A DNA stretch of 64,000 nt, taken from positions 248,001-312,000 of the forward strand of contig NZ_VCPE01000004.1 in NCBI RefSeq assembly GCF_005938105.1. The letters run 5' to 3'. Positions 1 through 56,869 of the stretch are shown piece after piece. The translations under genes were made by a program, and so were the position numbers. Numbering within the stretch: the stretch's first letter is position 1; every line of letters begins with the position of its first letter. Origin of the DNA: Brucella haematophila (lineage in GTDB: Bacteria > Pseudomonadota > Alphaproteobacteria > Rhizobiales > Rhizobiaceae). The notes below the pieces were generated by a model, which worked only from the letters and a program-made list of their open reading frames with translations, had not been told where the DNA came from and made no database searches.

Positions 1-693
1 GCGCTTTTCGATAGCTATGAAGCAACGCTGAACTTCTGCCTCAAGGCGCTGGAAGAAAATCTGGATTGCTATCTTCTGACCACTGTGGATCGGCGCTTTG
101 CGCGCTTCTACACCAAGTTCGGCGATCTGTTTCCATCCGACAAGGATGCCGTTTTCGCCATGATCGCGCCGGAAGAGCGCGAGCGCTTCGCAGAGCTTGC
201 GACCGAATTCAACGGTCAGGTGTCGTTCTCCATGACGCTGGACGAATTGCACAAGGCTGGTCTTCAGCCTGCCTATGAATGCGGCTGGAACCACACGACA
301 CTTCAGGCGCTGAAGGCGGAACCGGGCTGGACCTATCTTCAGGTTGCCTATCCACGTCCCTTCGACCCGGCCTTGGTCAATCGCCAGATCGAGCGTTATG
401 GCGACACGCAATATATGCACCATGAAATGGCGCGCCTTGAAGGCGAAGTGCAGATTTTCGGCCTGCCGCTCGTGCGTTTCGAAGACCGTGATGCGATGTA
501 TAAGCTCATCGGTGAATTGGAACAGGTCGACGGTTGCGACATCTACGATCCCCATGCCTATACCATTGAGGATGGCGGCATGAAGGAGATCGACAGCGTG
601 CAGATCGAGTTCAAGAAACTGGCCGATCCTTACGGTCTGCTCAATCCCGGCAAAACGCGCGGCTGGACCGCCGACATGGCACTTTCGAACTGA
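1..693 (+). CDS. FAD-binding oxidoreductase (FAD-linked oxidase), C-terminal part
   Basis: The reading frame is open from base 1 (ALFDSYEATLNF...) to the TGA at 691-693, so the gene starts before the window. About 230 residues are present. The end, LLNPGKTRGW, matches the C-terminal motif of FAD-linked oxidases of the GlcD / vanillyl-alcohol oxidase type, in which the C-terminal domain forms the substrate side of the active site; the FAD-binding (PCMH) half would lie upstream. The substrate cannot be told from this fragment. The next gene starts 19 bases downstream on the same strand, which suggests co-transcription with a solute-binding protein and hence oxidation of an imported compound. 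Confidence 0.75.
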   Translation, partial: ALFDSYEATLNFCLKALEENLDCYLLTTVDRRFARFYTKFGDLFPSDKDAVFAMIAPEERERFAELATEFNGQVSFSMTLDELHKAGLQPAYECGWNHTTLQALKAEPGWTYLQVAYPRPFDPALVNRQIERYGDTQYMHHEMARLEGEVQIFGLPLVRFEDRDAMYKLIGELEQVDGCDIYDPHAYTIEDGGMKEIDSVQIEFKKLADPYGLLNPGKTRGWTADMALSN

Positions 694-712
694 TAACAGG
701 GGAACGACACGA

Positions 713-1723
713 ATGAAAAAAGCACTCTTTGCGGCAGTCGCCGCTTTCTCGCTTGGCCTTTCCGCACAGATGGCCTTTGCGCTCGACAAGGTGACGCTCG
801 GCACCAACTGGCTGGCGCAGGCTGGCCACGGCGGTTTCTATCAGGCGCTCGCCGATGGCACCTATGAAAAATACGGCCTCGACGTAAAGATCGAAATGGG
901 CGGACCGCAGGTCAACAACCGTCCGATGCTGGCCGCAGGCCGCCTCGACTTCCTGCTCACTGGCAATCTGCTTCTGTCCTTCAACAATGTCGCCAATGGC
1001 GTTCCAACCACGGTTGTGGCTGCCTTCTACCAGAAGGACCCACAGGCCCTGATGGCGCATGACGGCGAATATAAGGATTTCAAGGATCTGGTGAACGCAC
1101 CGACAATCCTGATTTCCAAGGACGGCCAGTTCTCGTTCTGGCCCTGGCTGGTGAAGGAATTCGGTTTCAAGGACGAACAGCTGCGCCCCTATGGCTATAG
1201 CCTCGCCCAGTTCCTCGGCGACAAGAAGACCGTGCAGCAGGCCTATGCGACCGCCGAACCGCTTTATGCGGCCAAGGAAGGCGCAAAGGTCAAGACGTTC
1301 CTGCTCGCCGATGAGGGCTACAACACCTATGCAAACACCATCGAAACGCGTCAGGAGCTGGTCGACAAGAACCCCGACCTCGTACAGCGTTTCGTGACAG
1401 CTTCCATCGAAGGCTGGGTCAACTTCATGTATGGCGACCACAGCAAGGCCTATGAGATGATCCTCAAGGACAATGCGGATATGAGCAAGGAAACGCTCGA
1501 CGCCGAACTGGCTAATCTCAAGGAACTTCAGCTGATCGACAGCGGCGATGCGGTCACCAAGGGCATTGGCGCCATCGATATGAGCCGCGTCAAGGCGTTC
1601 TACGAGCTGGCGCGCAAGTCCGGCATCGTCAGTGGTGAAGAACTCGACATGAGCAAGGTTGCGACCGACGCCTTCGTCAATAAGGGCGCAGGCCTCGACA
1701 TCAAGAAGCAGTTGGGCCAGTAA
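713..1723 (+). CDS. ABC transporter substrate-binding protein, NMT1/THI5-like
   Basis: This is a 336-residue periplasmic binding protein. The first 23 residues form a typical Sec signal peptide (KK, hydrophobic stretch, MAFA before LDKVTL). The mature start, VTLGTNWLAQAGHGGFYQAL, is characteristic of the NMT1/THI5-like family that binds pyrimidine precursors, nitrate, sulfonates or similar small ligands. An AGGGG ribosome site lies just before the ATG. No permease or ATPase gene follows; they may lie upstream of the window. The next gene is a RutR-like regulator, which makes a pyrimidine-related or amide ligand plausible, but this is an inference from context. Confidence 0.8.
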   Translation: MKKALFAAVAAFSLGLSAQMAFALDKVTLGTNWLAQAGHGGFYQALADGTYEKYGLDVKIEMGGPQVNNRPMLAAGRLDFLLTGNLLLSFNNVANGVPTTVVAAFYQKDPQALMAHDGEYKDFKDLVNAPTILISKDGQFSFWPWLVKEFGFKDEQLRPYGYSLAQFLGDKKTVQQAYATAEPLYAAKEGAKVKTFLLADEGYNTYANTIETRQELVDKNPDLVQRFVTASIEGWVNFMYGDHSKAYEMILKDNADMSKETLDAELANLKELQLIDSGDAVTKGIGAIDMSRVKAFYELARKSGIVSGEELDMSKVATDAFVNKGAGLDIKKQLGQ

Positions 1724-1741
1724 GCCCACCACGAAAACGGA

Positions 1742-1776
1742 AAGCCGCCCCGCGTTTCTGAAATGCCCGGCGGCTT
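1742..1776 (+). terminator. Hairpin after substrate-binding protein gene
   Basis: AAGCCGCC at 1742-1749 is exactly complementary to GGCGGCTT at 1769-1776, with a 19-base loop and a pyrimidine-rich tail (CTCCTCT). It sits between the binding-protein stop and the TetR start. It may be a weak terminator or attenuator; there is no real U tract. Confidence 0.45.
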
Positions 1777-1799
1777 CTCCTCTGACCACGGTTACAAAT

Positions 1800-2456
1800 A
1801 TGACGATCGACGACGAGAATGACGACATCGAGCCGACCGGACGGGACAAGGTTCTCGACCGCCGACGGCGCATTCTCGGCGCGATCCGTACCGCGGCTAT
1901 CGATGAATTTGCCGAAAAGGGTCTGGTTGGTGCATCCACGCAAGGCATTGCGCAACGCGCCGGCCTGACCAAGCCGCAGCTGCATTATTATATTTCCAGC
2001 AAGGAAGAACTCTACGAGGACATTATCGTCTTCATCCTCGATGAGTGGGAAGATATCTTCCTCGATGCCAGCGCGGAAGACGATCCGGCCAAGGTGATCC
2101 GCCAATATATTCGGGCGAAACTCGACTACAGCCAGAAGAACCCGAAAGCATCGCGGCTTTTCACCACCGAAATCGCCAATGGTGCGCCCTATCTCAGCCG
2201 CCACTGGACCAAGCATGTCACCGCCACCCATCGCGCGGTCAAACTGATCCAGTCATGGGTGGACACTGGCCGTATCAAGCCGGTCGACCCGCTGCTGTTC
2301 CAGATGCATATCTGGGCGGTGACGCAGCATTATGCCGATTTTGAAACGCAGGTGCGCAGCATGATGGAAGTCGGCAAGGACGATCCACTGGATTTCGAGC
2401 GCATCGAAAAAGAAGTCTCGACACTGTTTCTGCGCGTCTGTGGATTGGCTGACTGA
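1800..2456 (+). CDS. TetR family regulator, RutR-like
   Basis: This is a transcription factor of about 218 residues. The N-terminal helix-turn-helix (about residues 22-68; STQGIAQRAGLTKPQLHYYISSKEELY) is TetR-like. The C-terminal half (ASRLFTTEIANGAP, then HIWAVTQHYADFETQV) resembles the YcdC/RutR ligand domain; RutR of E. coli is uracil-responsive and controls pyrimidine use. I chose the ATG at 1800 because the protein then begins just before the helix-turn-helix; the same frame stays open back to 1659, overlapping the binding-protein gene, and no clear ribosome site marks either start. It probably controls the upstream transport/oxidase genes. Confidence 0.75.
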   Translation: MTIDDENDDIEPTGRDKVLDRRRRILGAIRTAAIDEFAEKGLVGASTQGIAQRAGLTKPQLHYYISSKEELYEDIIVFILDEWEDIFLDASAEDDPAKVIRQYIRAKLDYSQKNPKASRLFTTEIANGAPYLSRHWTKHVTATHRAVKLIQSWVDTGRIKPVDPLLFQMHIWAVTQHYADFETQVRSMMEVGKDDPLDFERIEKEVSTLFLRVCGLAD

Positions 2457-2486
2457 AGTCAGCCGCATCAGCATTTGAATAGCAAA

Positions 2487-2513
2487 GCACCGCCTGAAAA
2501 CAGGCGGCGCTTT
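2487..2513. terminator. Bidirectional terminator between convergent genes
   Basis: CGCCTG at 2491-2496, an AAAA loop, and CAGGCG at 2501-2506, extended by flanking GC and followed by TTT. It lies between the convergent TetR gene and the membrane-protein gene on the minus strand. Confidence 0.65.
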
Positions 2514-2519
2514 ATGTCG

Positions 2520-3350
2520 TTATGCAGTCGCCAGATTGCCGAGCGCGTTTTCCGCCTTTGCCCGTTCTTCCGGCGTCAGTTCGAGGCGCGCAAGTTGCTC
2601 ATCAAGAAGGATCGGCAACGTGCCATCCGGATGCGCTGCGGCAACGCCGAATGTCTCATCGCTCTTTTCGTCGTAGTGGAAGAAAGGCGCTTCCTTCTTG
2701 CCGAAAACGGTCACGATATGCGGCGGCTTTTTCACACCGGTCAGCGGGCTGTAGCCGATGCGCGACTTGCCCATGCTGTCCTTGCGCGAAAGGATTTTCG
2801 CCCAGTAAAGCTGCAATTCCGCTTCGCTTTTTGCTGCACCCACCGTCTTCGAAATGTTGAGAAAACGCTTGATGAACAGGACAGAACAGCCAAGCATGAT
2901 GCCAAGCAGGACGACGCCCACCGTCAGGCGGTTCCAGAACTCATCGAGAGCCAGCGACAGCGTGACATTTTCAGGATGCGATTTCTGCATCACGACATCG
3001 GTTTCATAATCGCCGCTTGAAAAGCTGACGAAAGAGAAATCGACGGATTTGATCAGGCGCTCGCCTTCATACTCATAGGAGATGTTGGCCTTGCAGTCGG
3101 TGATCATCTTCTTGGTCCGGCAATTGCCGTCGAAAATGGTCGCATCTTCGATCACCACCGGATCCTGCTTGATCTGATAATCCGCATAGAGGCCCGGACC
3201 CCAGGCCCAGACAACGACGAACGAAATGACAGGGAAAATAAGCGCCAGAAAAAGCATGCGCCAGCGATCGGCGAAACCAGCTTTTCCTACCTTTATTTTG
3301 CGCGCGGGGAGAATGCCGGATAAATCCGGAAGAGAATAGGTTGTAGCCAT
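2520..3350 (-). CDS. Hypothetical membrane protein with two transmembrane segments
   Basis: This 276-residue protein is not recognised. It has a hydrophobic segment at about residues 33-52 (LFLALIFPVISFVVVWAWGP) and a second at about 140-160 (VGVVLLGIMLGCSVLFI). The loop between them holds two cysteines (GNCRTKKMITDC) and is probably periplasmic. The C-terminal 110 residues are soluble and end in an acidic/alanine-rich helix. The architecture recalls small envelope proteins with an exported central domain. It stands alone between two terminator-like regions, and I assign no function. Confidence 0.6.
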   Translation of the reverse strand: MATTYSLPDLSGILPARKIKVGKAGFADRWRMLFLALIFPVISFVVVWAWGPGLYADYQIKQDPVVIEDATIFDGNCRTKKMITDCKANISYEYEGERLIKSVDFSFVSFSSGDYETDVVMQKSHPENVTLSLALDEFWNRLTVGVVLLGIMLGCSVLFIKRFLNISKTVGAAKSEAELQLYWAKILSRKDSMGKSRIGYSPLTGVKKPPHIVTVFGKKEAPFFHYDEKSDETFGVAAAHPDGTLPILLDEQLARLELTPEERAKAENALGNLATA

Positions 3351-3493
3351 GTTGCTAATAATTTCTGGATATTTTCTGGTTGGGAGGAACCAGAACCTAA
3401 CGCAACGTTAGCAATGACTTAAATAGCTTTTCTCGACTACCCAGTAACGTAAAATTACACTTTTGAAACGAGTTGAACGCTGTTTCAGCAAAA

Positions 3494-4336
3494 TCAGCGC
3501 AATCCTTCCAGTTCGGCAATGCGTGCGGCGCTGTCCTTTTCCAGCATCCGCGTCATTTCGCGAATGAGGGTTTCAGCCAGCACAAACAGGGCCGCCGACG
3601 AATCCCATGCGGAGGGCACCGCCGTGCGGCCAGCCAGCACATGGCGCGCAACACGGGCAATCGGCGACAGCCACTGGTCGGTCACGAGAATGACCTCCAC
3701 ACCCCGCGCCCGCGCCTTTTCCGCAAGCTTCAGGAGACTGTCCTGATAGCGGCGAATGTCAAAAACGACGAGCACGTCGCGCTTGCCCATATCGAGCAAC
3801 CGGTCGCGCCAGATACTTTCCTGTCCGCCAAGATGAAACACATGCGGACGAATGATCGTCATATGCGCCGTCATATATTGCGCGATCGGGTCGGTGAAGC
3901 GACCGCCGATCAGATAAATATTGCCCTTGGCATTCGAAAGCGCCGCCACCGCTTGCCGCAACTGCTTGGCGCCAAGGTGACGGAATGTCTCGCGGATATT
4001 CTCCTGCGTGTGCTCCACCGCCGGATAGGCCGTATCCAGGCTTTTGTCCGAGTGTTCATTGCGATGGTGCGGCGACTGCAATTGCGCCGCAAGCTCGTTT
4101 TGCAGATGCGCCTGAAACTCGGGATAGTTCTGGAAACCGAGCCGGTTCACGAAACGCAGGATGGTCGGAGAACTGACCCCTGCCTGCGCCGAAAATTCCG
4201 CCACCGTCTTCAACCCCAGCATGGGGTAATTGGCGATCAATGTCTGGGCTGCGGCACGCTCTCCGGCGGGCATCGTATCGATCCGTTCATTGATGCGTTC
4301 GGCGACGCTGGCGCTTTCCGACAAGGCGTTTTCCAT
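3494..4336 (-). CDS. RpiR family transcriptional regulator (HTH plus SIS domain)
   Basis: This is a 280-residue regulator. The N-terminal RpiR helix-turn-helix spans about residues 15-80 (TVAEFSAQAGVSSPTILRFVNRLGF). A SIS (sugar isomerase) fold at about 125-245 (KGNIYLIGGRFTDPIAQY, later EVILVTDQWLSPIA) would bind the effector; SIS domains in this family usually bind phosphosugars, but family members also control amine and amino-acid catabolism. It is transcribed away from the amidohydrolase/permease/ligase cluster, so it is the likely local regulator. Confidence 0.85.
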   Translation of the reverse strand: MENALSESASVAERINERIDTMPAGERAAAQTLIANYPMLGLKTVAEFSAQAGVSSPTILRFVNRLGFQNYPEFQAHLQNELAAQLQSPHHRNEHSDKSLDTAYPAVEHTQENIRETFRHLGAKQLRQAVAALSNAKGNIYLIGGRFTDPIAQYMTAHMTIIRPHVFHLGGQESIWRDRLLDMGKRDVLVVFDIRRYQDSLLKLAEKARARGVEVILVTDQWLSPIARVARHVLAGRTAVPSAWDSSAALFVLAETLIREMTRMLEKDSAARIAELEGLR

Positions 4337-4385
4337 TCGACGTTTCGGCCCGACAACACTTGTGAATTGTGAGCCAAATTATATT

Positions 4386-4408
4386 TGACAAATTATCATA
4401 CGGCGTAT
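4386..4408. promoter_or_regulatory. Candidate promoter/operator in the divergent rpiR-amidohydrolase region
   Basis: The 139-base divergent region is AT-rich and contains a TTGACA hexamer at 4386-4391. Next to it is an exact odd palindrome, ATACGGCGTAT (4398-4408), embedded in TTTGA...TCAAA flanks. This layout suits a -35 element overlapped by a regulator site, plausibly that of the RpiR protein. No convincing -10 with ideal spacing could be fixed by eye. Confidence 0.35.
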
Positions 4409-4475
4409 CAAATAATCCGCAATAGCGCAGAATTTTAAAAAACGTAACATAAGTTACAGCGCAGGGAACAAACAG

Positions 4476-5237
4476 ATGGCGGACGAGCGAGAGGGACGCC
4501 CGGCTTCGCATGAGCCGGTTTTTGTCGTCAACGAAACGGGGCAGAGTCCCTGGCTTTTCGTTTGCGAACACGCTTCCAATTATGTGCCGGAACGTTTCGA
4601 CGGTTTGGGTCTGGGCGAGGATGCCCTGCGCGCCCATATCGCCTGGGACCCCGGTGCGGTTGAGGTTGCACGGCATCTGAGCGCCGCGCTCGACGCGCCG
4701 CTGGTTGAGTCGCGCCTGTCGCGTCTGCTGATTGATTGCAACCGTCCGCTCGACGCGCCGGACCTCATTCCGGAGGTCAGCGAAATGACTGTCATTCCGG
4801 GCAATCACGAGCTGAACTCGCTCGAACGCACGGCGCGAATCGACATGTCGCATCGCCCATTTCATGCGCGCATCGAACAACTGATCGCGGCGCGCGCGGC
4901 ACGCGGCCTGCCGTCGTGGATCGTCACGATCCATTCATTCACGCCGGTCTATCGCGATGTGGCACGCCCCTGGCAGATCGGCATTATTCACGACGCGGAC
5001 GACCGTGTAGCCGCGCCATTGATTGCGGCGTTGAAGCAGGATTCCGCGCTCAATGTGGGCGTTAATGAGCCTTACGCGCCTTCCGACCGTGTTTACTACA
5101 CGCTGGAACGCCATGCACGCCCGCGCAATACGCCCTGCGCCATGATCGAAATCCGCAACAATGAAATCGCCGACGCAAAGGCGCAGACAGCATGGGCTTC
5201 ACGGCTTGCGGAAATCTTCCGCAACCTGAAAGCCTGA
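4476..5237 (+). CDS. N-formylglutamate amidohydrolase family protein
   Basis: This 253-residue protein belongs to the N-formylglutamate amidohydrolase family (zinc-dependent, HutG-like; PF05013). Family signatures are ICEHASNYVP-like (VCEHASNYVPERFDGLGL, residues 30-47), HIAWDPGA, the ligand-rich IVTIHSFTP, and the C-terminal IEIRNNEI. The known reaction is hydrolysis of an N-acyl or formyl amide of glutamate. AGGGAAC before ATG 4476 supports the start. No hut genes are nearby. It precedes a permease, a glutamine-synthetase-like ligase and two dehydrogenases, so hydrolysis of a gamma-glutamyl amide intermediate is an attractive alternative role (inference). Confidence 0.8.
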   Translation: MADEREGRPASHEPVFVVNETGQSPWLFVCEHASNYVPERFDGLGLGEDALRAHIAWDPGAVEVARHLSAALDAPLVESRLSRLLIDCNRPLDAPDLIPEVSEMTVIPGNHELNSLERTARIDMSHRPFHARIEQLIAARAARGLPSWIVTIHSFTPVYRDVARPWQIGIIHDADDRVAAPLIAALKQDSALNVGVNEPYAPSDRVYYTLERHARPRNTPCAMIEIRNNEIADAKAQTAWASRLAEIFRNLKA

Positions 5238-5318
5238 TCAGGTTTTATGACAAGAGAAGAAGACTGAAAGTACCATCCGCATGAGTGAGTAGAGAGCAGA
5301 GATCAAAGGGGAACAACC

Positions 5319-6878
5319 ATGAGCTCAGATTACTCCGATAAAGATAAAAGCGAGGACATCAAAGTCCTGCATGGCATGGGTTACGCTCAGGAACTGCAAC
5401 GTTCCATGAGCCGATTTTCGAACTTCGCAATTTCATTTTCCATCATCTGCATCCTGTCTGGCGGCATCAACTCCTTCGCCCAGGCTATTTCCTCGGTCGG
5501 CGGCGCTGGCGCAGGTATTGGCTGGATTGTCGGCTGTCTGATATCCGGCATGTTCGCCCTGTCGATGGCGCAGATCGCTTCGGCCTTCCCGACCGCTGGC
5601 GGCCTCTATCACTGGGCCTCTATTCTCGGTAACCGTTTCACCGGCTGGCTGACTGCATGGCTCAACCTGCTCGGGCTGATCACCGTTCTCGGCGCGATCA
5701 ATATCGGCACCGCCTTCTTCTTTCAGGGAACGTTCGGCCACCTGATCGGCATGGATACCTCGGCAGGGCATATCGTGATTTTCGTCACGATCATCACCAT
5801 CGGGCAGGCCCTGTTCAACCATCTCGGCATCAAGGTCACGACATTCCTGACCGATATTTCGGGTTATATCATCTTCATCACCACCGCCGCTCTGGTTGTC
5901 GGCTGTCTGGTCTATGCGCCAGCGCTGGATTTCTCGCGTCTGTGGACCTTCACCAACTATTCCGGTGCAGCGGGCGGCGAAGTCTTCCCGCAGAGCGACA
6001 ACATGGCTTACCTGTTCCTGCTCTGCCTGTTGCTGCCGGTCTATACGATCACCGGTTATGACGCCTCGGCCCATACATCCGAGGAAACCATCAAGGCAGC
6101 CCATACGGTTCCGCGCGGCATTGTATCGGCAGTATTCTGGTCTTCGCTCGTCGGCTGGATCATGATCTGCGCCATCACGCTGGCAATCCCGGACATGAAT
6201 GCAGCAGCCGCGCAAGGCTGGGGCATGTTCTTCGGCACCATGGACGCCATCCTGCCCGGACCGCTGAAGAATGTGATCTATTTCGCCATCGTCATCACGC
6301 AGCTACTCTGCGGTCTGGCGACGGTGACGTCCGCATCGCGCATGCTGTTCGCCTTCTCTCGCGATGACGGCATGCCGATCGGCTCCAAGACGCTCGCCAG
6401 CGTTTCGCCGAAATACCGCACGCCGGTTGCTGCGATCTGGACCGCTGCCTTCCTCGAAATCATCTATGTTTTCGCGGCGCAGTTCGTCTCCATCGGTGGC
6501 ACCAACCTCTACACCATCGTCGTCAACTCGACGCTCGTCTTCCTGTTCCTGTCCTTCACCATTCCGCTCGTGCTGGCGATTTTTGCCTATGGCACGCCGA
6601 AATGGCCGAACCCGGGACCATGGGCCATGTCGGGCGGCCTCTACAAGCTGGTGACATTCCTTTCAGTCGTCGGCATGGCGATTATTTTCTACATCGCCGT
6701 GCAGCCGCCAAACGACAAGGTGCTGTGGATCGTTGTCGGCTTCGTCCTGCTTGCCGGTGTTCTCTGGCTGACCGTCGAGAACAAGCGTTTCCAGGGCCCG
6801 CCGGTCGGCGACCGGATCGCCAAGCGTGCGGCTGAAATCGCAGCCGCAGAACGGGCCGTCGGCGAAACTGCCCACTAA
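5319..6878 (+). CDS. APC family amino acid/amine permease
   Basis: This 519-residue integral membrane protein has about 12 hydrophobic segments. The N-terminal pattern (FSNFAISFSIICILSGGINSF, then GWIVGCLISGMFALSMAQIASAFPTAGGLYHWASIL) is that of the APC superfamily, amino acid / choline / GABA permease branch. The conserved FPTAGGLYHW motif follows TM2. AAAGGGGA sits before the ATG. It should import the substrate that the downstream ligase glutamylates; this branch carries amino acids, GABA, putrescine and ethanolamine-like amines. A strong hairpin follows the stop codon. Confidence 0.9.
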   Translation: MSSDYSDKDKSEDIKVLHGMGYAQELQRSMSRFSNFAISFSIICILSGGINSFAQAISSVGGAGAGIGWIVGCLISGMFALSMAQIASAFPTAGGLYHWASILGNRFTGWLTAWLNLLGLITVLGAINIGTAFFFQGTFGHLIGMDTSAGHIVIFVTIITIGQALFNHLGIKVTTFLTDISGYIIFITTAALVVGCLVYAPALDFSRLWTFTNYSGAAGGEVFPQSDNMAYLFLLCLLLPVYTITGYDASAHTSEETIKAAHTVPRGIVSAVFWSSLVGWIMICAITLAIPDMNAAAAQGWGMFFGTMDAILPGPLKNVIYFAIVITQLLCGLATVTSASRMLFAFSRDDGMPIGSKTLASVSPKYRTPVAAIWTAAFLEIIYVFAAQFVSIGGTNLYTIVVNSTLVFLFLSFTIPLVLAIFAYGTPKWPNPGPWAMSGGLYKLVTFLSVVGMAIIFYIAVQPPNDKVLWIVVGFVLLAGVLWLTVENKRFQGPPVGDRIAKRAAEIAAAERAVGETAH

Positions 6879-6883
6879 CCAGC

Positions 6884-6912
6884 AACTCTGGCCGGTTCAT
6901 CCGGCCAGAGTT
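6884..6912 (+). terminator. Intra-operon hairpin between permease and ligase genes
   Basis: AACTCTGGCCGG (6884-6895), loop TTCAT, CCGGCCAGAGTT (6901-6912): a perfect 12-bp stem, followed by TCCC rather than a U run. It lies 6 bases after the permease stop and 31 bases before the next start. It could act as a partial terminator or 3' stabiliser giving unequal expression of the two genes. Confidence 0.6.
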
Positions 6913-6943
6913 TCCCATCGGATAATTTTTGGAGAGCACAAGA

Positions 6944-8311
6944 ATGGCTGGATCCCTATCGTTTGAAGAACTCAAGAAAGCCGTTTCTGCCGGAGATATC
7001 GATACAGTTCTCGCCTGCATCGTGGATATGCAGGGGCGCCTGATCGGCAAGCGCTTCTATGCGCCGTTCTTCGTGGAATCCGCCTATGACGAAACCCATG
7101 GCTGCAACTATCTCCTTGCCGACGATATCGACATGGAGCCGGTGCCGGGCTATGAGGCCGCGAGCTGGGACAAGGGTTACGGCGACTTCGTCATGAAGCC
7201 GGATCTTTCCACCATCCGGCTTGCGCCATGGCTGGAAAAGACCGCCATCATTCTTTGCGACGTGCAGGATCATCACCATCACGATCTGGCCCATTCGCCA
7301 CGGGCTATTTTGAAAAAGCAGCTCGCCCGCCTGCATGAGCGCGGCTATCGCGCCTATTTCGCATCCGAGCTGGAATTCTATATTTTTGACGAGTCCTACA
7401 AGACGGCCCGCAACAAGCATTGGCAGGCCATGGAAACGGCCTCGCCCTATATTCAGGACTATGTGATTCACCTGACGACCAGAGAAGAGCCGGTTCTGCG
7501 CGCCATGCGCAATCAACTGGCTGCGGCGGGCATTCCCGTCGAAAATTCGAAGGGCGAATGGGGTCCGGGGCAAGAAGAGCTGAATGTGCGTTATGCCGAA
7601 GCGCTGGAAATGGCCGACCGGCATGTAATCATGAAGACCGCAATGAAGGACATTGCCGAGCAACACGGCAAGTGCATCACCTTCATGGCAAAATATGATT
7701 ACAACAAAGCGGGCAGTTCCAGCCATGTGCACAATTCCGTCTGGAGCGCCGACGGCAAGGAGCCGCTCTTCTTCGACCCGAAAGCGCCGCATACGATGAC
7801 GCCGCTGATGCGGTCATGGGTGGCGGGCCAGTTAAAGTATGCGACCGACTACACTTATTTCCTCGCGCCTTACATCAATTCCTACAAGCGCTTTCAGGCG
7901 GGCACCTTCGCGCCGACCAAGATCACTTGGAGCGAAGACAACCGCACGGCGGGCTTCCGTCTCTGCGGTGAAGGCACCAAGGCGATCCGTATCGAATGCC
8001 GTATCGGCGGGGCCGACCTCAATCCTTATCTCGCTTTCGCTGCGCTGATCGCCGCCGGGCTTCAGGGCGTGGATGAAAAGCTGGAACTGGAAGAGCCTTT
8101 CGTGGGCGATGCCTATGGCGCGGTGAAACTGAAGGAAATTCCCTATACGCTGCGCGAAGCCGCCCTTGCTCTCAAGAACTCGTCTTTCCTGAAAGAGGCG
8201 CTCGGTGAGGATGTGGTCAGCCATTATGTTCACACGGCCCATTGGGAGCAGATCGAATATGATCGTCGCGTCACGGACTGGGAACTGCATCGCGGCTTCG
8301 AGCGCTACTGA
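6944..8311 (+). CDS. Glutamine synthetase family protein (gamma-glutamyl amine ligase, PuuA-like)
   Basis: This 455-residue protein has the glutamine synthetase fold: an N-terminal beta-grasp part (DIDTVLACIVDMQGRLIGKR) and the catalytic domain with ASELEFYIFD (metal ligands), GPGQEELNVRYAEALEMADR, and AGSSSHVHNS (ATP/ammonia-site histidine). It lacks the adenylylation-loop region typical of GlnA I and resembles gamma-glutamylpolyamine or gamma-glutamylamine synthetases, which join glutamate to an amine using ATP. I chose ATG 6944 because GGAGAG lies 7 bases upstream; an in-frame TTG at 6929 would overlap that ribosome site. It lies in one unit with a permease and two dehydrogenases. Confidence 0.85.
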   Translation: MAGSLSFEELKKAVSAGDIDTVLACIVDMQGRLIGKRFYAPFFVESAYDETHGCNYLLADDIDMEPVPGYEAASWDKGYGDFVMKPDLSTIRLAPWLEKTAIILCDVQDHHHHDLAHSPRAILKKQLARLHERGYRAYFASELEFYIFDESYKTARNKHWQAMETASPYIQDYVIHLTTREEPVLRAMRNQLAAAGIPVENSKGEWGPGQEELNVRYAEALEMADRHVIMKTAMKDIAEQHGKCITFMAKYDYNKAGSSSHVHNSVWSADGKEPLFFDPKAPHTMTPLMRSWVAGQLKYATDYTYFLAPYINSYKRFQAGTFAPTKITWSEDNRTAGFRLCGEGTKAIRIECRIGGADLNPYLAFAALIAAGLQGVDEKLELEEPFVGDAYGAVKLKEIPYTLREAALALKNSSFLKEALGEDVVSHYVHTAHWEQIEYDRRVTDWELHRGFERY

Positions 8312-8350
8312 CCGGCCACCATCTAGAATGACATATGAAGGACATGCCCG

Positions 8351-9736
8351 ATGAGCGGCACCGCCAAGATCATCTCGCCTATCGACGGTTCGGTCTATGC
8401 CGAGCGCCCATTTTTGAGCGAAACCGCCATCCAGTCCACGGTTGCTGCCGCGCGCGCGGCGCAAGCTGCCTGGGCCGAACTGAGCATAACGGAGCGGGCG
8501 CGTTATTGCCGTGCTGCGCTTGCAGCGCTTGCCGCGATGCAGGACGAAATCGTGCCGGAGATTGCCTGGCAGATGGGGCGACCAACCCGTTACGGCGGCG
8601 AAAACGGCGGCGTGCAGGAACGCGGTCAGTACATGATCGACATTGCCGGGGAAGCGCTGGAGCCTTATCTCCCAGCGCCGAAAGACGGTTTCCGCCGCTA
8701 TGTCAAACATGTGCCGCTTGGCGTCGTGCTGGTGATTGCGCCGTGGAACTATCCGTATCTCACCGCCGTCAACACCATCATTCCCGCCCTGATGGCAGGC
8801 AACAGCGTTATCCTCAAACATGCCACACAGACGCTTCTGGCTGGTGAGCGCTTTGCACAGGCGTTTGAGAAGGCCGGGCTGCCCAAGGGTGTCTTCCAGA
8901 ATGTCGTTCTGGATCATGCCTCCACCGAAAAACTGCTGGCTTCGGGCACGGTCGATCATGTGAATTTCACCGGATCGGTCGGCGGCGGTCGGGCCATTGA
9001 AAAGGCTGCCGCAGGCACCTTCATGACGATGGGGCTGGAACTTGGCGGCAAGGACCCGGCCTATGTTCTGCCGGACGTCAATCTGGACCACGCCGTGGCC
9101 AATCTGGTCGATGGCGCTTACTTCAATTCGGGTCAATGTTGCTGCGGCATCGAACGCATCTATGTGCATGAAGATGTCTATGACCGCTTTGTCGATGGCT
9201 TCATTGATCTGACACGCCAATATGTCGTCGGCAATCCGCTGGATGCTGGCACGACGCTTGGACCGATGGCGCAGGCGCGCTTCGCCGATCTCATCCGCGA
9301 GCAGAAAGCGGAAGCGCTGCGCAAGGGTGCCAAGGCGCATGTGAATATGAAGGTCGATCATGATGTGACCGGTTCGCCCTATATCGCGCCGGAAGTGCTC
9401 ACCCATGTTGATCACCAGATGAGCGTCATGCGCGAAGAGAGTTTCGGCCCTATCGTCGGCATCATGAAAGTGCGCAACGATCAGGAAGCGCTCGCCTTGA
9501 TGAATGACAGCATTTACGGCCTGACCGCTTCGCTGTGGACCACGGATACGGACCGCGCCGCAGCGCTTGGTGACCGCATTGAAACCGGCACGGTTTTCAT
9601 GAACCGCTGCGATTATCTCGATCCCGGCCTTGTCTGGACGGGTGTCAAGGATACCGGCAAAGGCGCTTCCCTTTCGCCGATTGGCTACGGCAATCTGACC
9701 CGGCCAAAATCCTTCCACCTGCGTGAAAAAATCTGA
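8351..9736 (+). CDS. Aldehyde dehydrogenase (NAD(P)-dependent)
   Basis: This 461-residue protein has the complete ALDH landmarks: VLVIAPWNYPYL (cofactor domain), NFTGSVGGGRAI, the general base in MGLELGGKDPAYV, and the catalytic cysteine in NSGQCCCGIERIYV, then EESFGPIVG and the C-terminal PKSFHLR. It would oxidise an aldehyde to the acid. It begins 39 bases after the ligase stop. In the putrescine (Puu) route the corresponding enzyme oxidises a gamma-glutamylated aldehyde. The partner here is an alcohol dehydrogenase rather than a flavin amine oxidase, so an amino-alcohol-derived aldehyde is the better guess. Confidence 0.9.
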   Translation: MSGTAKIISPIDGSVYAERPFLSETAIQSTVAAARAAQAAWAELSITERARYCRAALAALAAMQDEIVPEIAWQMGRPTRYGGENGGVQERGQYMIDIAGEALEPYLPAPKDGFRRYVKHVPLGVVLVIAPWNYPYLTAVNTIIPALMAGNSVILKHATQTLLAGERFAQAFEKAGLPKGVFQNVVLDHASTEKLLASGTVDHVNFTGSVGGGRAIEKAAAGTFMTMGLELGGKDPAYVLPDVNLDHAVANLVDGAYFNSGQCCCGIERIYVHEDVYDRFVDGFIDLTRQYVVGNPLDAGTTLGPMAQARFADLIREQKAEALRKGAKAHVNMKVDHDVTGSPYIAPEVLTHVDHQMSVMREESFGPIVGIMKVRNDQEALALMNDSIYGLTASLWTTDTDRAAALGDRIETGTVFMNRCDYLDPGLVWTGVKDTGKGASLSPIGYGNLTRPKSFHLREKI

Positions 9737-9774
9737 TCTGATCCCTGTTCTGCCCCACTTTGAAAGCAATCGAT

Positions 9775-10947
9775 ATGACGACACTGACCGCTAAATGGAA
9801 CTTCCCGACCACCGTTCTTTTCGGACCCGGGCGCATCAAGGAACTGCCCGCCGTTTTGAAGGCAGCAGGCATTGCGCGTCCGCTTTTCGTCACCGATCCG
9901 GGTCTGGCGAAACTTCCCGTGGTCGCTTCCACGCTGGCCATTCTCGATGCGGCGGGCGTCAAGTACGGAGTGTTTTCCGACGTTAAGCCCAACCCGGTCG
10001 AAAGCAATCTCTATGCAGGCGTGAAGGTCTATCAGGATGGCAAACATGACGGCGTCATCGCCTTCGGCGGCGGTTCGGCGCTCGATCTGGGCAAGTTGAT
10101 CGCCTTTCAAGCTGGCCAAACGCGCCCGGTCTGGGATTTTGAGGATATTGGCGATTGGTGGACCCGCGCCGACAGCGACGCCATCGCGCCGGTGATCGCC
10201 GTTCCGACTACCGCCGGCACCGGCTCGGAAGTGGGCCGCGCAGGCGTGTTGACCAACGAAGCCACCCACACGAAGAAGGTCATTTTCCACCCGAAAATGC
10301 TGCCAGTAACAGTCATTGCCGATCCTGAACTTTCCACCGGCATGCCGCCTTTCATCACGGCTGGCACCGGCATGGATGCGCTGGCGCATTGCCTTGAAGC
10401 CTATTGCGCACCCGGCTTTCACCCGATGGCAGACGGCATTGCAGTTGAAGGAATCCGTCTTGTGTTCGAAAATCTGCCCAAGGCCTATGCCGACGGCAAC
10501 AACATTGAGGCCCGCGCCAATATGATGGCCGCTGCCGCGATGGGCGCCACCGCCTTTCAGAAAGGGCTTGGCGCGATCCATTCGCTGTCGCATCCGATTG
10601 GCGCGCTCTACGATACCCATCACGGCATGACCAATGCGGTCTTCATGCCCTATGTACTGCACCACAACCGCGCCGCTATCGAAAAGCGGATCGAGCGTCT
10701 TGCAGATTATCTGGGCATCAAGGGCGGTTTCGACGGCTTCGTCACTGCCATTGTGAAACTGCGCAAGGACCTCGGCGTGCCAAACACATTGCCAGAATTC
10801 ATCAAGGGGCTGGAGATGGACGACGCCCGCAAGGATCTGATTGCCGAAATGGCAATTGTCGACCCGACAGCAGGTGGCAATCCGACTGAACTTACCAAAA
10901 AGGATGCGCTCAAACTTCTTGAGCAGAGCATCGTTGGCAACGGTTGA
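9775..10947 (+). CDS. Iron-containing alcohol dehydrogenase
   Basis: This 390-residue protein is of the type III (iron) alcohol dehydrogenase family. The nucleotide motif is GGGSALDLGK. PTTAGTGSEVGRAGVLT is followed by the metal-ligand region MDALAHCLEAY and the histidines in HSLSHPIGALYDTHHGMTNAV. It oxidises a primary alcohol to an aldehyde with NAD(P). ATG 9775 gives the family-typical beginning; an in-frame TTG at 9760 is an alternative. It ends the same-strand run from 4476 and is followed by a strong convergent terminator. Confidence 0.9.
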   Translation: MTTLTAKWNFPTTVLFGPGRIKELPAVLKAAGIARPLFVTDPGLAKLPVVASTLAILDAAGVKYGVFSDVKPNPVESNLYAGVKVYQDGKHDGVIAFGGGSALDLGKLIAFQAGQTRPVWDFEDIGDWWTRADSDAIAPVIAVPTTAGTGSEVGRAGVLTNEATHTKKVIFHPKMLPVTVIADPELSTGMPPFITAGTGMDALAHCLEAYCAPGFHPMADGIAVEGIRLVFENLPKAYADGNNIEARANMMAAAAMGATAFQKGLGAIHSLSHPIGALYDTHHGMTNAVFMPYVLHHNRAAIEKRIERLADYLGIKGGFDGFVTAIVKLRKDLGVPNTLPEFIKGLEMDDARKDLIAEMAIVDPTAGGNPTELTKKDALKLLEQSIVGNG

Positions 10948-17771: not shown

Positions 17772-18890
17772 CTATTTGCCTGCCGCCTGCGCGGCATAGA
17801 CATAGCTGTCATAGGTATATTCGGCGACGCGGAACCACTCGAAGCCCTCGTCACGGAATTTCTTCCAGCTCGGATAGATCTTCGCCCAGGCCGGGTTCTT
17901 CTCATTATATTCGGCATAGAGATCGAAGGTGACCTTGTAAGCCGCATCCAGCACATCGCGCGGGAGGGGTTTCAATTGCACGCCCTTCGAAACCAGCGAG
18001 CGAATTGCAGCGGTATTCTTGACGTCATAGAGCGAGATCATGTTCTGCGTTGCAGCCTGAGCGGCGGTGTTCAGAGCCACTTTGTAAGCTTCCGGCAGGC
18101 TTTCATATTGCTGCTTGTTGACGAAAAAATGCACCGAAGCGCCACCCTCCCAGAAAGCCGGATAGTAGTAATAAGGCGCGATCTGGTAAAAGCCGAGCTT
18201 TTCATCGTCATAGGGGCCGACCCATTCGGCAGCATCGATGGTTCCGCGTTCCAGCGACGGATAGATATCGCCGCCCGGAAGCTGCTGCGGTACGACGCCA
18301 AGGCGAGACATGACCTCGCCGGCCACGCCGGCAATGCGCATCTTCAGACCTTTCAGGTCTTCGAGGCTCTTGATTTCCTTGCGATACCAGCCGCCCATCT
18401 GCGCGGCGGTGTTGCCACCGACGATGCCGACAACGCCATAATCAGACAGAAATTCATTATAAAGTTCGTTGCCGCCGCCATGATAGAGCCATGCATTTTG
18501 CAGGCGCGTATTCATGCCGAAGGGAATGGCAGTACCGATGGCGAAAGCCGGGTTTTTGCCGGTGAAATAATAGCCGCATGTATGCGCGATTTCGACCGTA
18601 TTGGCCTGCACTGCGTCGATTGCCTGCGGACCGGGCACCAGTTCGCCTGCCTGAAACACCTGAATCTGGAACTTGCCATCCGTCATCTTCGACAAGGCAT
18701 TAGCCATATAGACGGCGCCGCCATAGATCGTGTCGAGATTGTTCGGGAAGCCCGATGTCAGACGCCAGCGCAAGGTTGGCAGTTCATCCGCAATGGCTGG
18801 CGTGGCAAGCGCTGCGCCGCTTGTTGCTGCTGCGGCACCAATGGCCGCGCCCTTGGTCAGAAATGTACGGCGGTTCAAATCCTGTTTCAT
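17772..18890 (-). CDS. TRAP transporter substrate-binding protein, TakP-like (alpha-keto acids)
   Basis: This is a 372-residue periplasmic protein with a Tat-type signal (NRRTFLTKG, hydrophobic core, ATPAIA before DELPTL). The mature part (WRLTSGFPNNLDTIYGGA, IAHTCGYYFTGKNPAF, MRIAGVAGEVMSRLGVVPQQLPGGDIYPSLERGTIDAAEWVGPYDD) closely resembles TakP-type DctP proteins, which bind pyruvate and other 2-oxo acids with a conserved arginine. It is the last gene of a DctQ-DctM-DctP unit and is followed by a terminator. Confidence 0.85.
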   Translation of the reverse strand: MKQDLNRRTFLTKGAAIGAAAATSGAALATPAIADELPTLRWRLTSGFPNNLDTIYGGAVYMANALSKMTDGKFQIQVFQAGELVPGPQAIDAVQANTVEIAHTCGYYFTGKNPAFAIGTAIPFGMNTRLQNAWLYHGGGNELYNEFLSDYGVVGIVGGNTAAQMGGWYRKEIKSLEDLKGLKMRIAGVAGEVMSRLGVVPQQLPGGDIYPSLERGTIDAAEWVGPYDDEKLGFYQIAPYYYYPAFWEGGASVHFFVNKQQYESLPEAYKVALNTAAQAATQNMISLYDVKNTAAIRSLVSKGVQLKPLPRDVLDAAYKVTFDLYAEYNEKNPAWAKIYPSWKKFRDEGFEWFRVAEYTYDSYVYAAQAAGK

Positions 18891-18952
18891 GTCTTCCTCC
18901 TCTAAGACGATTGATCATAAATGACCCACGCAGTGACTGGTCTCCCCTATCC

Positions 18953-20521
18953 TCACTGCGCAGGCTTTTCCGGTTGTCCGAAACTTGGTGGCGGCGACCC
19001 GAAAGATGGCGCGGGCAGCGGGTCCGTGGACGGCGAAGGCGCACCGAAGGGGGCGGGCGCATTACCGAACGGGTTGCCGCCGCCCGCATCTGGTCCCAGA
19101 CCCGGCATTGGAACGTTGATCTGGATCGTGGACGGATCAGCCGCCGGGTGGCTGGATTTGTAATGGGTGACTATGCCCGGAAAGGCGATAATGATCGCGA
19201 CCATGACCAGCTGGATCAGCAGGAACGGGATCGACCCCATATAGATCTGGCCAGACGTGACCGGCTGGATCGTGGCACCCGTCATTTTGTCCTTATAGGC
19301 GCGCGAGGGCGCCACCGAGCGCAAATAGAACAATGAAAACCCGAACGGCGGATGCATGAACGATGTCTGCATGTTCACCGCCAGCATGACGCCGAACCAG
19401 ACGAGATCGATGCCGAGAGCGTCGGCCACCGGCGCCAGAAGCGGGATAATGATGAAAGCCAGCTCGAAATAATCGAGGAAAAAGGCCAGAAAGAAGACAA
19501 GAAGATTGGCGACGATCAGGAAGCCGACTTCACCGCCCGGAATGGAAGTCATCAGATGCTCGACCCAGACGTGGCCGTTGACGCCATAGAAGGTGAGCGA
19601 GAAGACACGTGCACCCAGCAGAATGAAGATGACGAAGGACGATAGCTTCGCGGTAGCGTAAAGCGCCGAGGTCAGCATCTTCATGTTCAGGCGGCGGTTG
19701 ATGATGGCCAGCAGCAATGCGCCGACCGCACCCATCGCGCCGCCTTCTGTCGGCGTAGCGACGCCGATGAAGATCGTACCCAGAACGAGGAAGATCAGCA
19801 CCAGCGGCGGCACGAGCGAAACCACCACGCGCTGCGCCAGCTTCCACCCCTTCAAGGTGCGGGCGTGTGGCGGCAGAGCCGGTACGGTTTCCGGACGCAG
19901 GATCGACATGCCGATGATGAAGGCGCAATAGACACCGACCAGCATCAGACCCGGCACCAGCGCGCCCTTATACATGTCGCCGACAGAACGGCCGAGCTGG
20001 TCGGCCAGAACGATCAGAACGAGGCTCGGCGGAATGATCTGCGCCAATGTGCCGGAAGCGGCAATCGTGCCGCTCGCCACCTTGCGATCATAGCCGTAGC
20101 GCAGCATGATCGGCAGCGAGATGAGCCCCATCGAAATCACCGAAGCGGCAACAACACCGGTGGTCGCAGCCAGAAGTGCGCCGACGATGATCACCGCAAA
20201 GGCCAGACCACCGCGCACGGGGCCGAATAGCTGCCCGATCGTGTCGAGCAGATCTTCCGCCATGCCGCTTCGCTCCAGTATCAACCCCATGAAGGTGAAG
20301 AAGGGAATCGCAAGCAGAGTTTCGTTCGACATCTGGCCGAATATCCGGTCGGGTATGGCCCCGAACAGATTGACCGGCAAAAGCCCCATTTCGATGCCGA
20401 CGAAACCGAAGGCAAAGCCGACAAAGGCGAGCGCAAAAGCCACTGGATAACCGAGCAAAAGCACGACGATCAGCGAGAGGAACATCAGCGGCGCAAGATT
20501 TTCCGCGAAGAAAGCAACCAT
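18953..20521 (-). CDS. TRAP transporter large permease, DctM-like, with Pro/Gly-rich tail
   Basis: This 522-residue integral membrane protein is the ion-coupled translocation subunit of a TRAP transporter. Typical motifs are LLLGYPVAFALAFVGFAFG, the AATTGVVAASVISMGLISLPIML segment and SGTLAQIIPPSLVLIVLADQLG. Roughly the last 65 residues (after about position 455) form a proline-, glycine- and alanine-rich cytoplasmic or periplasmic tail ending FGQPEKPAQ that normal DctM proteins (about 430-450 residues) lack. It starts 11 bases after the small subunit. Confidence 0.9.
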   Translation of the reverse strand: MVAFFAENLAPLMFLSLIVVLLLGYPVAFALAFVGFAFGFVGIEMGLLPVNLFGAIPDRIFGQMSNETLLAIPFFTFMGLILERSGMAEDLLDTIGQLFGPVRGGLAFAVIIVGALLAATTGVVAASVISMGLISLPIMLRYGYDRKVASGTIAASGTLAQIIPPSLVLIVLADQLGRSVGDMYKGALVPGLMLVGVYCAFIIGMSILRPETVPALPPHARTLKGWKLAQRVVVSLVPPLVLIFLVLGTIFIGVATPTEGGAMGAVGALLLAIINRRLNMKMLTSALYATAKLSSFVIFILLGARVFSLTFYGVNGHVWVEHLMTSIPGGEVGFLIVANLLVFFLAFFLDYFELAFIIIPLLAPVADALGIDLVWFGVMLAVNMQTSFMHPPFGFSLFYLRSVAPSRAYKDKMTGATIQPVTSGQIYMGSIPFLLIQLVMVAIIIAFPGIVTHYKSSHPAADPSTIQINVPMPGLGPDAGGGNPFGNAPAPFGAPSPSTDPLPAPSFGSPPPSFGQPEKPAQ

Positions 20522-20532
20522 ATCCGTCCCCC

Positions 20533-21081
20533 TCAGAGCGCTTGTGCTTCTGCGTCTTCAGCCGCCACCGTGTCCGGTAGCCGCCCTTGCAGAATGGCAA
20601 TGCGTTTGATGAGTTCAGACAGGCCTTGCAGCGCCAATAGCCCGAAACCGATGGGGATTAGCGTCCAGACCGGCCAGAGAACCAGCCCGCCGGTATTGTT
20701 CGAGGTTTCACCGCTGGCGAACTTCGCTTCCACAATGGGCCATGAAAGATAGATCGTGATGAGGCAGAAGGGCAGCAGGAAGACGATGGTGCCGAAAATC
20801 TCCACCAGAAGCTGTGTGCGCCGCGAGTAACGGCTGTAGAGCAAATCGACCTTCACATGTTCGCTGTGCAGCAGCGTATAACCCGCAGCGATCAGGAAAA
20901 CCGCCGAGAACAGATACCACTGCGCTTCCAGCCATGCATTGGAACTGAGATTGAAAAGCTTGCGCGAAACCGCATTGATGGCGCTGATCAGCACCGCCAC
21001 GAGTATCAACCAGGATACTGCTTTTCCGATGAAATCATTGGCCGCGTCGATAGCGCGCGACAACGCCAGCAAAACTGACAT
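20533..21081 (-). CDS. TRAP transporter small permease, DctQ-like
   Basis: This 182-residue protein has four hydrophobic segments, including WLILVAVLISAINAVSRKLFNLSSNAWLEAQWYLFSAVFLIAAGYTLL and HVKVDLLYSR, the DctQ-family signature (ExxRYxF...AW.EE..YLF-like). It stabilises the large subunit. It is the first gene of the transporter operon; a 16-base palindrome lies about 102 bases upstream. Confidence 0.9.
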   Translation of the reverse strand: MSVLLALSRAIDAANDFIGKAVSWLILVAVLISAINAVSRKLFNLSSNAWLEAQWYLFSAVFLIAAGYTLLHSEHVKVDLLYSRYSRRTQLLVEIFGTIVFLLPFCLITIYLSWPIVEAKFASGETSNNTGGLVLWPVWTLIPIGFGLLALQGLSELIKRIAILQGRLPDTVAAEDAEAQAL

Positions 21082-47409: not shown

Positions 47410-48134
47410 CGCGTCACGACCGACGTCTTGACGGGTACCGTCAGCTGATAGCCGCCATTGCGAACGGTTTTAAAAATATCTCCGGCCTGGCTGTCATCCA
47501 GCTTGCGGCGCAACCGGCTCATGAGCACATCAATCGAGCGATCCAGCGGGCCACGGCCACGCCCCTGCGTGAAATCAAGCAGTTGATCGCGCGACAGCAG
47601 GCGTCCCGGACGTTCCACGAATACTTTCAGCAAGTCAAATTCAGCCGCCGTCAGTTCGAGCTGTACGCCATCCTGCTTCACAACCTTGCGCAATTGCGGG
47701 TCGAGCGCGAAATCACCGAAATGAAAAATCGTCACATCGTCGTTCGTGGTTGAGGCAACATGCTGGCTGCGACGCAGCACAGCCTTGATGCGCGCCGTCA
47801 GCTCCCGGGGATTGAACGGCTTGCCAAGATAGTCATCCGCGCCGATTTCCAGACCGATGATGCGATCCACATCCTCTTTCAAGGCCGTCAGCAAAATGAC
47901 CGGAATGCTCGGTTCCCGATCCCGCAGCCGTCTGCAAATATCGAGGCCGGAACCATCCGGCAACATGACATCCAGCACAATCAGATTGGGGTTCGTCTCC
48001 GTGAGCCGCTTCTCACATTCGCGTCGATCACCCGCCACAGAAACACGAAAACCCTGCTCACTGATATAGCGAGACAGCAGTGATCGAATTTCCGGGTCGT
48101 CATCGACAATCAGTATATGTGGAGGAACGCTCAT
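47406..48134 (-). CDS. OmpR-family response regulator of the efflux operon
   Basis: This 242-residue protein has a receiver domain with D55 (LIVLDVMLPDGSG) and lysine in LGKPFNPRELTARIKAVLRR. A C-terminal winged helix (about 140-235; LELTAAEFDLLKVFVERPGRLLSRDQLLDFTQGRGRGPLDRSIDVLMSRLRRKL) follows. It is the first gene of a run of five genes whose borders overlap or nearly touch, so the regulator is probably co-transcribed with the pump it controls. Confidence 0.94.
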   Translation of the reverse strand: MSVPPHILIVDDDPEIRSLLSRYISEQGFRVSVAGDRRECEKRLTETNPNLIVLDVMLPDGSGLDICRRLRDREPSIPVILLTALKEDVDRIIGLEIGADDYLGKPFNPRELTARIKAVLRRSQHVASTTNDDVTIFHFGDFALDPQLRKVVKQDGVQLELTAAEFDLLKVFVERPGRLLSRDQLLDFTQGRGRGPLDRSIDVLMSRLRRKLDDSQAGDIFKTVRNGGYQLTVPVKTSVVTR

Positions 48135-56527: not shown

Positions 56528-56529
56528 GT

Positions 56530-56862: not shown

Positions 56863-56869
56863 TTACTCT

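What the first reader, a model, noticed from the sequence alone, without database searches (positions are those of the whole stretch)
4476..10947. Possible gamma-glutamylation route for an amino alcohol such as ethanolamine
Seen: APC permease, PuuA-like glutamine-synthetase-family ligase, aldehyde dehydrogenase and iron alcohol dehydrogenase in one run, preceded by an N-formylglutamate-amidohydrolase-family gene and a divergent RpiR gene. Known: the Puu pathway glutamylates putrescine, then uses a flavin amine oxidase, an aldehyde dehydrogenase and a gamma-glutamyl hydrolase. Inferred: the oxidase is absent and an alcohol dehydrogenase is present, so the substrate should carry a hydroxyl. Ethanolamine would go to gamma-glutamylethanolamide, the aldehyde, gamma-glutamylglycine, and finally glutamate plus glycine cleaved by the amidohydrolase-family enzyme. 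That would be a B12-independent ethanolamine or amino-alcohol route.
Basis: partly seen in the sequence, partly recalled or inferred. Interest (0 to 1): 0.78.

Follow-up and report, generated by a model that had tools for sequence, protein, structure and literature searches.

The report
Known ethanolamine pathway, different uptake permease
This is a bacterial gene cluster that very probably breaks down ethanolamine by first attaching glutamate to it, a route already described in other bacteria; the one twist is that the usual uptake system is replaced by a different kind of permease.

Summary
In detail: RpiR, FGase-family hydrolase, APC permease, GS-family ligase, ALDH and Fe-ADH lie in that order at 3494-10947. 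The same enzyme families are listed for Chromohalobacter salexigens. The same order, with a TRAP transporter, is described in Phaeobacter MED193, where five cluster proteins rose on phosphorylethanolamine. Streptomyces GlnA4 was shown to be a γ-glutamylethanolamide synthetase. In the papers I could read, the later steps are predictions. The window ligase matches PDB 11zs and 5dm3 far better than other solved synthetases, keeps metal and ATP residues and lacks E327 and Y179. The genome has no EutB. Of 80 same-family neighbourhoods fetched, 65 carry all four partner genes. Small points I did not find described: the slot that holds a TRAP system in the eight closest loci compared (in one tested, a homologue of the ethanolamine-binding protein 4uab) holds an APC permease here; transporter type changes repeatedly on the ligase tree; a conserved GTAAC-N4-GTTAC palindrome 26 bp before the first gene is a likely RpiR operator. 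Ordinary biology, correctly guessed.

The parts
3494..4336 (-). RpiR-family regulator (HTH_6 + SIS), divergent; probable pathway repressor/sensor
   Evidence: Pfam; present in 66 of 80 family neighbourhoods
4385..4413 (+). candidate promoter: TTGACA (4385-4390), then TATCAAAT (4406-4413)
   Evidence: read; in the alignment (17 rows, window included) TTTGACAA stands in 12 of the 13 rows that reach that far and GTATNAAAT in 13 of 14; no promoter scan was run
4444..4457 (.). candidate operator GTAAC-ATAA-GTTAC, centre about 26 bp before the FGase start
   Evidence: 63 of 94 RpiR-FGase intergenic regions match with at most 2 mismatches, against about 6.3 of 94 in mononucleotide shuffles; only exact match in the window
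4476..5237 (+). FGase-family (PF05013) hydrolase; predicted gamma-glutamylglycine amidohydrolase (GGAH)
   Evidence: Pfam; 36 residues conserved at 97% or more in 68 sequences, window included; one solved relative, 2odf
5319..6878 (+). APC-superfamily permease, predicted ethanolamine importer, in the slot that holds a TRAP system in sister loci
   Evidence: Pfam; NCBIfam TIGR00907 203 bits, below its cut-off of 598; slot comparison
6944..8311 (+). GS-family ligase, predicted gamma-glutamylethanolamide synthetase
8351..9736 (+). aldehyde dehydrogenase, predicted gamma-glutamyl-aminoacetaldehyde to gamma-glutamylglycine; E230 and C264 kept (roles recalled)
9775..10947 (+). iron-type alcohol dehydrogenase, predicted gamma-glutamylethanolamide dehydrogenase; D201, H205, H269, H283 kept (metal roles recalled)

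Best explanation
A member of the known gamma-glutamylation route for ethanolamine. The APC permease imports ethanolamine. The GS-family ligase joins it to the gamma-carboxyl of glutamate with ATP. The iron alcohol dehydrogenase and then the aldehyde dehydrogenase oxidise the hydroxyl to a carboxyl, giving gamma-glutamylglycine. The FGase-family enzyme cleaves that to glutamate (recycled) and glycine. RpiR probably represses the operon through the GTAAC-N4-GTTAC palindrome until an inducer appears. Shown here: gene content and order, conservation, active-site residues, transporter difference from sister loci, palindrome. Inferred from relatives: every reaction, the substrate, and repression.
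For: Same order RpiR-GGAH-transporter-ligase-ALDH-ADH as Phaeobacter MED193_10021-10056; GGAH, EtoX, ligase, ALDH and ADH rose on phosphorylethanolamine and EtoX binds ethanolamine with Kd 7.9 uM (PMC10132767). Same Pfam set listed for C. salexigens (PMC9397018). GlnA4 proven on ethanolamine (PMC6529630). Ligase 951 bits to 11zs and 555 to 5dm3, next best 187. E327 of GlnA is F322 here and F331 in GlnA4; Y179 is D172 (GlnA4 residues). TRAP binding protein of sister locus L118 512 bits to 4uab, the ethanolamine-bound Csal_0678 (PMC12410723). No EutB; a separate GS + FAD-oxidase pair elsewhere.
Against: The TRAP binding protein that best argues for ethanolamine is absent here: the genome's best match is 27% identical, so the substrate link runs through the ligase clade, not the window's own transporter. 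The APC permease scores only 25 bits on the ethanolamine permease (Eat) model. In 13 of 80 family neighbourhoods no FGase gene was found beside the ligase (at least two, L067 and L104, are cut short), and none was found within 7.5 kb of the ligase in the 20 Pseudomonas loci, so the hydrolase can sit elsewhere or be another enzyme. No reaction was assayed here, and PMC10132767 itself calls its pathway predicted.
Confidence: 0.9

Rival explanations
1. Same chemistry but the natural substrate is another primary amino alcohol (for example L-alaninol or 3-aminopropanol), with ethanolamine secondary.
For: The substrate is not fixed by gene content; the APC permease stands where sister loci have the TRAP system, which could accompany a change of substrate. 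A second entry with the 4uab sequence, 4xf5, exists, recalled as holding an amino alcohol other than ethanolamine.
Against: The ligase is 88-90% identical to sister ligases in clusters with the TRAP system, whose binding protein in L118 matches 4uab, so a switch limited to this genome is unlikely; the studied systems in the papers read point to ethanolamine.
Confidence: 0.06
2. A Puu-type diamine route: the ligase glutamylates putrescine or a similar diamine.
For: Shared family with PuuA, an APC permease and an ALDH; weak match to the GGputSyn model, 195 of 650 bits.
Against: No amine oxidase or aminotransferase in the run; an Fe-ADH beside the ligase in 77 of 80 neighbourhoods; a separate GS + FAD-oxidase pair elsewhere in the genome; 28% identity to PuuA.
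Confidence: 0.02
3. An ordinary or auxiliary glutamine synthetase beside unrelated 4-hydroxybutyrate/semialdehyde dehydrogenases.
For: Best NCBIfam models are TIGR00653 (GlnA) for the ligase, 4-hydroxybutyrate dehydrogenase for the ADH and succinic semialdehyde dehydrogenase for the ALDH.
Against: All three are far below the curated cut-offs (245.9 of 429, 339.8 of 500, 306.3 of 521); E327 is F in all 15 family rows aligned, window included; a higher-scoring GS-family gene lies at C45 (466.5 bits); the cluster is conserved as a unit.
Confidence: 0.02

Closest known systems
Phaeobacter sp. MED193 ethanolamine operon MED193_10021-10056 (PMC10132767; outline with abstract, passages and section 9 read)
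   Same: RpiR, gamma-glutamylglycine amidohydrolase, transporter, ethanolamine gamma-glutamylase, aldehyde dehydrogenase, gamma-glutamylethanolamide dehydrogenase, in that order
   Different: TRAP transporter EtoVWX there, a single APC permease here; no direct sequence comparison with MED193 was made
Chromohalobacter salexigens ethanolamine gamma-glutamylation pathway (PF00120, PF00465, PF00171, PF05013; Csal_0678), as reported in PMC9397018, PMC6529630 and PMC4646407; primary papers not held
   Same: all four enzyme families; 5dm3 is recalled to be its ligase, 555 bits to the window's
   Different: TRAP solute-binding protein there; distant genus
Streptomyces coelicolor glnA4 cluster SCO1610-1615 (PMC6529630)
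   Same: GS-family gamma-glutamylethanolamide synthetase proven on ethanolamine; ALDH; a permease gene in the cluster of other Streptomyces; E327 replaced by F
   Different: short-chain dehydrogenase instead of Fe-ADH; 'glutamine amidotransferase' in its Fig. 2 legend (its discussion says formylglutamate amidohydrolase family); EpuRI as regulator
E. coli Puu pathway
   Same: gamma-glutamyl protection, ALDH step, final gamma-glutamyl cleavage
   Different: diamine substrate, flavin oxidase PuuB, PuuD hydrolase; no counterpart of these two in the run

Membership tests
Ethanolamine gamma-glutamylation (Eto/ETAGA) operon | GS-family ligase of the 5dm3 type | tested here: met
   951 and 555 bits to 11zs and 5dm3, next 187
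Ethanolamine gamma-glutamylation (Eto/ETAGA) operon | Fe-ADH, ALDH and FGase-family hydrolase beside the ligase | tested here: met
   together with RpiR in 65 of 80 family neighbourhoods
Ethanolamine gamma-glutamylation (Eto/ETAGA) operon | divergent RpiR regulator | tested here: met
   candidate operator
Ethanolamine gamma-glutamylation (Eto/ETAGA) operon | TRAP transporter EtoVWX (in Phaeobacter and, for the binding protein, C. salexigens; not required by the chemistry) | tested here: not met
   APC permease in its slot; no close EtoX in the genome, best 27%
Ethanolamine gamma-glutamylation (Eto/ETAGA) operon | ammonia-handling residues replaced, metal/ATP residues kept | tested here: met
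   E327 to F322, Y179 to D172, N264 to A256; six metal ligands, H271, R321, R344 and R359 kept; the D50 column holds D63, so that site does not discriminate
Ethanolamine gamma-glutamylation (Eto/ETAGA) operon | activity on ethanolamine and growth phenotype | not testable with these tools
   needs enzyme assays and mutants
Streptomyces GlnA4 | same ligase clade as GlnA4 | not tested
   GlnA4 was compared only through residues given in PMC6529630
E. coli-type Puu pathway | flavin gamma-glutamylputrescine oxidase (PuuB) and PuuD hydrolase in the cluster | tested here: not met
   absent from the run; a GS + DAO pair lies elsewhere
B12-dependent Eut pathway | EutB ethanolamine ammonia-lyase | tested here: not met
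   0 matches in the own genome; of 14 control genomes only E. coli rings
Eat ethanolamine permease (TIGR00908) | match above model cut-off | tested here: not met
   25.1 bits against 381.75

The most novel reading that the evidence does not exclude
The catabolic cassette is fixed while its import module is exchanged in place: a TRAP system, two kinds of APC-like permease, or nothing recognised, stands upstream of the same ligase gene. In the window's lineage an APC permease that does not match the Eat model, and that I did not find described for RpiR/Fe-ADH-type clusters, has taken over as the ethanolamine importer.
Probability: 0.6. Interest if true: 0.3.

Novelty: new member of a known kind. 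Interest (0 to 1): 0.2.

Why it matters
It confirms a sequence-only guess and shows the ligase of this B12-independent route to be common in the bacterial family (110 of 151 genomes at E up to 1e-80, own genome included). For annotators, such ligases are better not called glutamine synthetase or PuuA, and the hydrolase beside them is probably not a histidine-pathway N-formylglutamate amidohydrolase. The transporter difference gives a cheap test of whether this APC subfamily carries ethanolamine.

Tried and rejected
Non-orthologous replacement of the hydrolase: I looked for a class-I γ-glutamyl hydrolase beside FGase-less clusters. Ten neighbours chosen from four FGase-less loci (L178, L181, L192, L197; not all their neighbours) gave no such hydrolase (lactate permease, dienelactone hydrolase, TetR, methyltransferase, two cytochrome bd subunits, M90 peptidase, SDR, glycosyltransferase, Mur ligase). 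It neither supports nor excludes the hydrolase assignment.

Plasmid collection: one 324-base, 75.4% match in Salipiger, no cluster. PDB search with the APC permease: nothing at E up to 0.001. tRNA scan of the window: none.

Considered and rejected: a recent gain of the APC gene. It is 76-77% identical to the closest Mesorhizobium copies, about as diverged as the ligases beside them (74-75%), and one locus (L131) holds two APC copies, so old exchange and differential loss of two transporters cannot be told apart. The ligase tree is a quick tree; many transporter changes are weakly placed (starred branches force 5 for TRAP and 6 for APC, against 18 and 14 by parsimony), and the APC label is hardly more clustered than chance (28 of 500 shuffles as low; TRAP 0 of 500).
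Full report
What is there. The window lies in a 5.5-Mb genome. Its nearest named ligase relatives are in Ochrobactrum sp. CGA5 and Brucella pseudintermedia, 90% identical. A sigma-54 response regulator and, by reading only, a sensor kinase follow in the opposite direction.

The ligase. Its best solved relatives are 11zs (951 bits) and 5dm3 (555 bits); the next scores 187. It is 28% identical to E. coli PuuA and 27% to E. coli GlnA. Against GlnA, the six metal ligands and H271, R321, R344 and R359 are kept, while E327 becomes F322, Y179 becomes D172 and N264 becomes A256. The F at the E327 position occurs in all 15 family rows aligned, window included, and is the residue reported for GlnA4 (F331; PMC6529630). 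GlnA4 was shown to make γ-glutamylethanolamide and to be needed for growth on ethanolamine. Whether GlnA4 belongs to this ligase's clade was not tested. The D50 column holds D63 here and E in eight of the 15 rows; the paper aligns D81 or D69 of GlnA4 there, so that site is uninformative.

The other enzymes. Residues conserved at 97% or more, window included, are ALDH E230 and C264 among others (76 sequences) and Fe-ADH D201, H205, H269 and H283 among others (78 sequences) (their roles are recalled). The FGase enzyme has one solved relative, 2odf, named a hypothetical protein.

Literature. Papers were found by searches. PMC10132767 (outline with abstract, passages and section 9 read) describes in Phaeobacter the order RpiR, γ-glutamylglycine amidohydrolase, EtoV, EtoW, EtoX, ethanolamine γ-glutamylase, ALDH, ADH. 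[quoted passage not shown] salexigens and A. tumefaciens C58; their figure calls the pathway predicted. PMC9397018 (passages) lists PF00120, PF00465, PF00171 and PF05013 for C. salexigens. PMC6529630 (abstract, results and discussion read; passages) gives the same chemistry for Streptomyces, with only the GlnA4 step assayed, and credits the C. salexigens prediction to Gerlt 2016, with a 2015 meeting abstract also cited. Gerlt 2016 and Vetting 2015 are not held and the 2015 abstract was not sought. One loose end: PMC6529630 calls the Streptomyces hydrolase 'glutamine amidotransferase' in its Fig. 2 legend and a formylglutamate amidohydrolase family member in its discussion.

Conservation. Of 151 genomes of the family, own genome included, 110 have the ligase at E up to 1e-80; of 289 drawn from the class, 32 at E up to 1e-120, own genome included. 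Of the 113 places (112 without the window's own), I fetched 80 neighbourhoods: the 29 best after the window's own and 51 others picked by hand down the list. Of these 80, FGase is present in 67, RpiR in 66, ALDH in 75, Fe-ADH in 77, all four in 65; L067 and L104 are cut by contig ends. The transporter upstream of the ligase is TRAP in 45, this APC type in 17, a second APC-like type in 3, and none recognised in 15.

Transporter difference. The eight loci with the closest ligases (82-90% identical: L118, L119 which is the same contig as L076, L120, L171, L077, L121, L078, L122) all have TRAP genes in the slot. In L118 and L119/L076 the left flank (an unidentified ORF at 85-693, the NMT1-like gene and the TetR gene) is syntenic with the window at 86-89% identity, so it is the same place in the genome; in L077 only a TetR fragment matches, in the other five nothing on that side, and on the right side none of the eight has the window's neighbours in the stretch fetched. 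The TRAP binding protein of L118 matches 4uab at 512 bits, the Csal_0678 structure with ethanolamine bound (PMC12410723 and PMC4646407, passages). The window's genome has no such protein (best 27% identity); it was not searched for Eat or EutH. On the ligase tree of 81 rows the window groups with three TRAP-bearing rows at 100% SH-aLRT; at least 15 changes are needed among TRAP, APC and the second APC type, though starred branches force only 5 for TRAP and 6 for APC, and 28 of 500 shuffles are as clustered as the APC label. The closest APC copies are in Mesorhizobium, 76-77% identical.

Regulation. Between RpiR and the FGase gene a palindrome, GTAAC-ATAA-GTTAC at 4444-4457, recurs: 63 of 94 intergenic regions have a best match of at most 2 mismatches, against about 6.3 of 94 in mononucleotide shuffles. 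The 94 come from both locus sets and the window, hold duplicates and related genomes, and are not independent. It lies just downstream of a TTGACA/TATCAAAT pair conserved in the relatives aligned, which suits repression. RpiR binding is inferred.

Genome context. No EutB. Five GS-family genes and five FGase-family genes. One GS gene lies near a FAD oxidase (L204), perhaps a separate γ-glutamyl-amine route, although that oxidase's best NCBIfam model is L-pipecolate oxidase, below cut-off. Another lies beside its own FGase gene, with an SBP_bac_5 solute-binding gene, an M20 peptidase and a second RpiR gene nearby (L203). The genome thus has two GS + FGase pairs, which fits FGase-family enzymes as γ-glutamyl hydrolases but does not prove it.

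Verdict. Correct observation, correct and largely published interpretation, low novelty. The transporter replacement and the candidate operator are the parts I did not find described in searches, none of which was aimed at an operator.

Noticed in passing
L203 (own genome C23:409000-427999), 376-10754: A second GS-family + FGase pair near an M20 peptidase, an SBP_bac_5 (dipeptide-type) binding protein with likely ABC genes, and an RpiR gene; possibly another gamma-glutamylation route of unknown substrate.
   Followed up: partly
L204 (own genome C34:341000-358000), 7644-10825: GS-family gene followed, after about 470 bp, by a FAD-dependent oxidoreductase; perhaps a Puu-type pair, though the oxidase's best NCBIfam model is L-pipecolate oxidase, below cut-off.
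   Followed up: partly
20 Pseudomonas loci among L167-L196: Ligases 69-72% identical to the window's, closer than many from the window's own family; 19 of 20 with ALDH and Fe-ADH, 14 of 20 with this APC type downstream, none with FGase or RpiR found within 7.5 kb (some loci are cut short); suggests transfer between classes.
   Followed up: partly
window 2520-3350 (-): Hypothetical protein with no Pfam or NCBIfam match, standing between the TetR gene and RpiR, where sister loci L118 and L119 have no room for it; no tblastn match in the nine sister loci tried.
   Followed up: no
window 17775-21081 (-): Another TRAP-like system (by reading); its binding protein is 27% identical to that of L118, so not an ethanolamine TRAP by sequence.
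   Followed up: no
window 48001-50000 and 56001-58000: Two stretches at about 49% GC in a window of about 57% GC.
   Followed up: no
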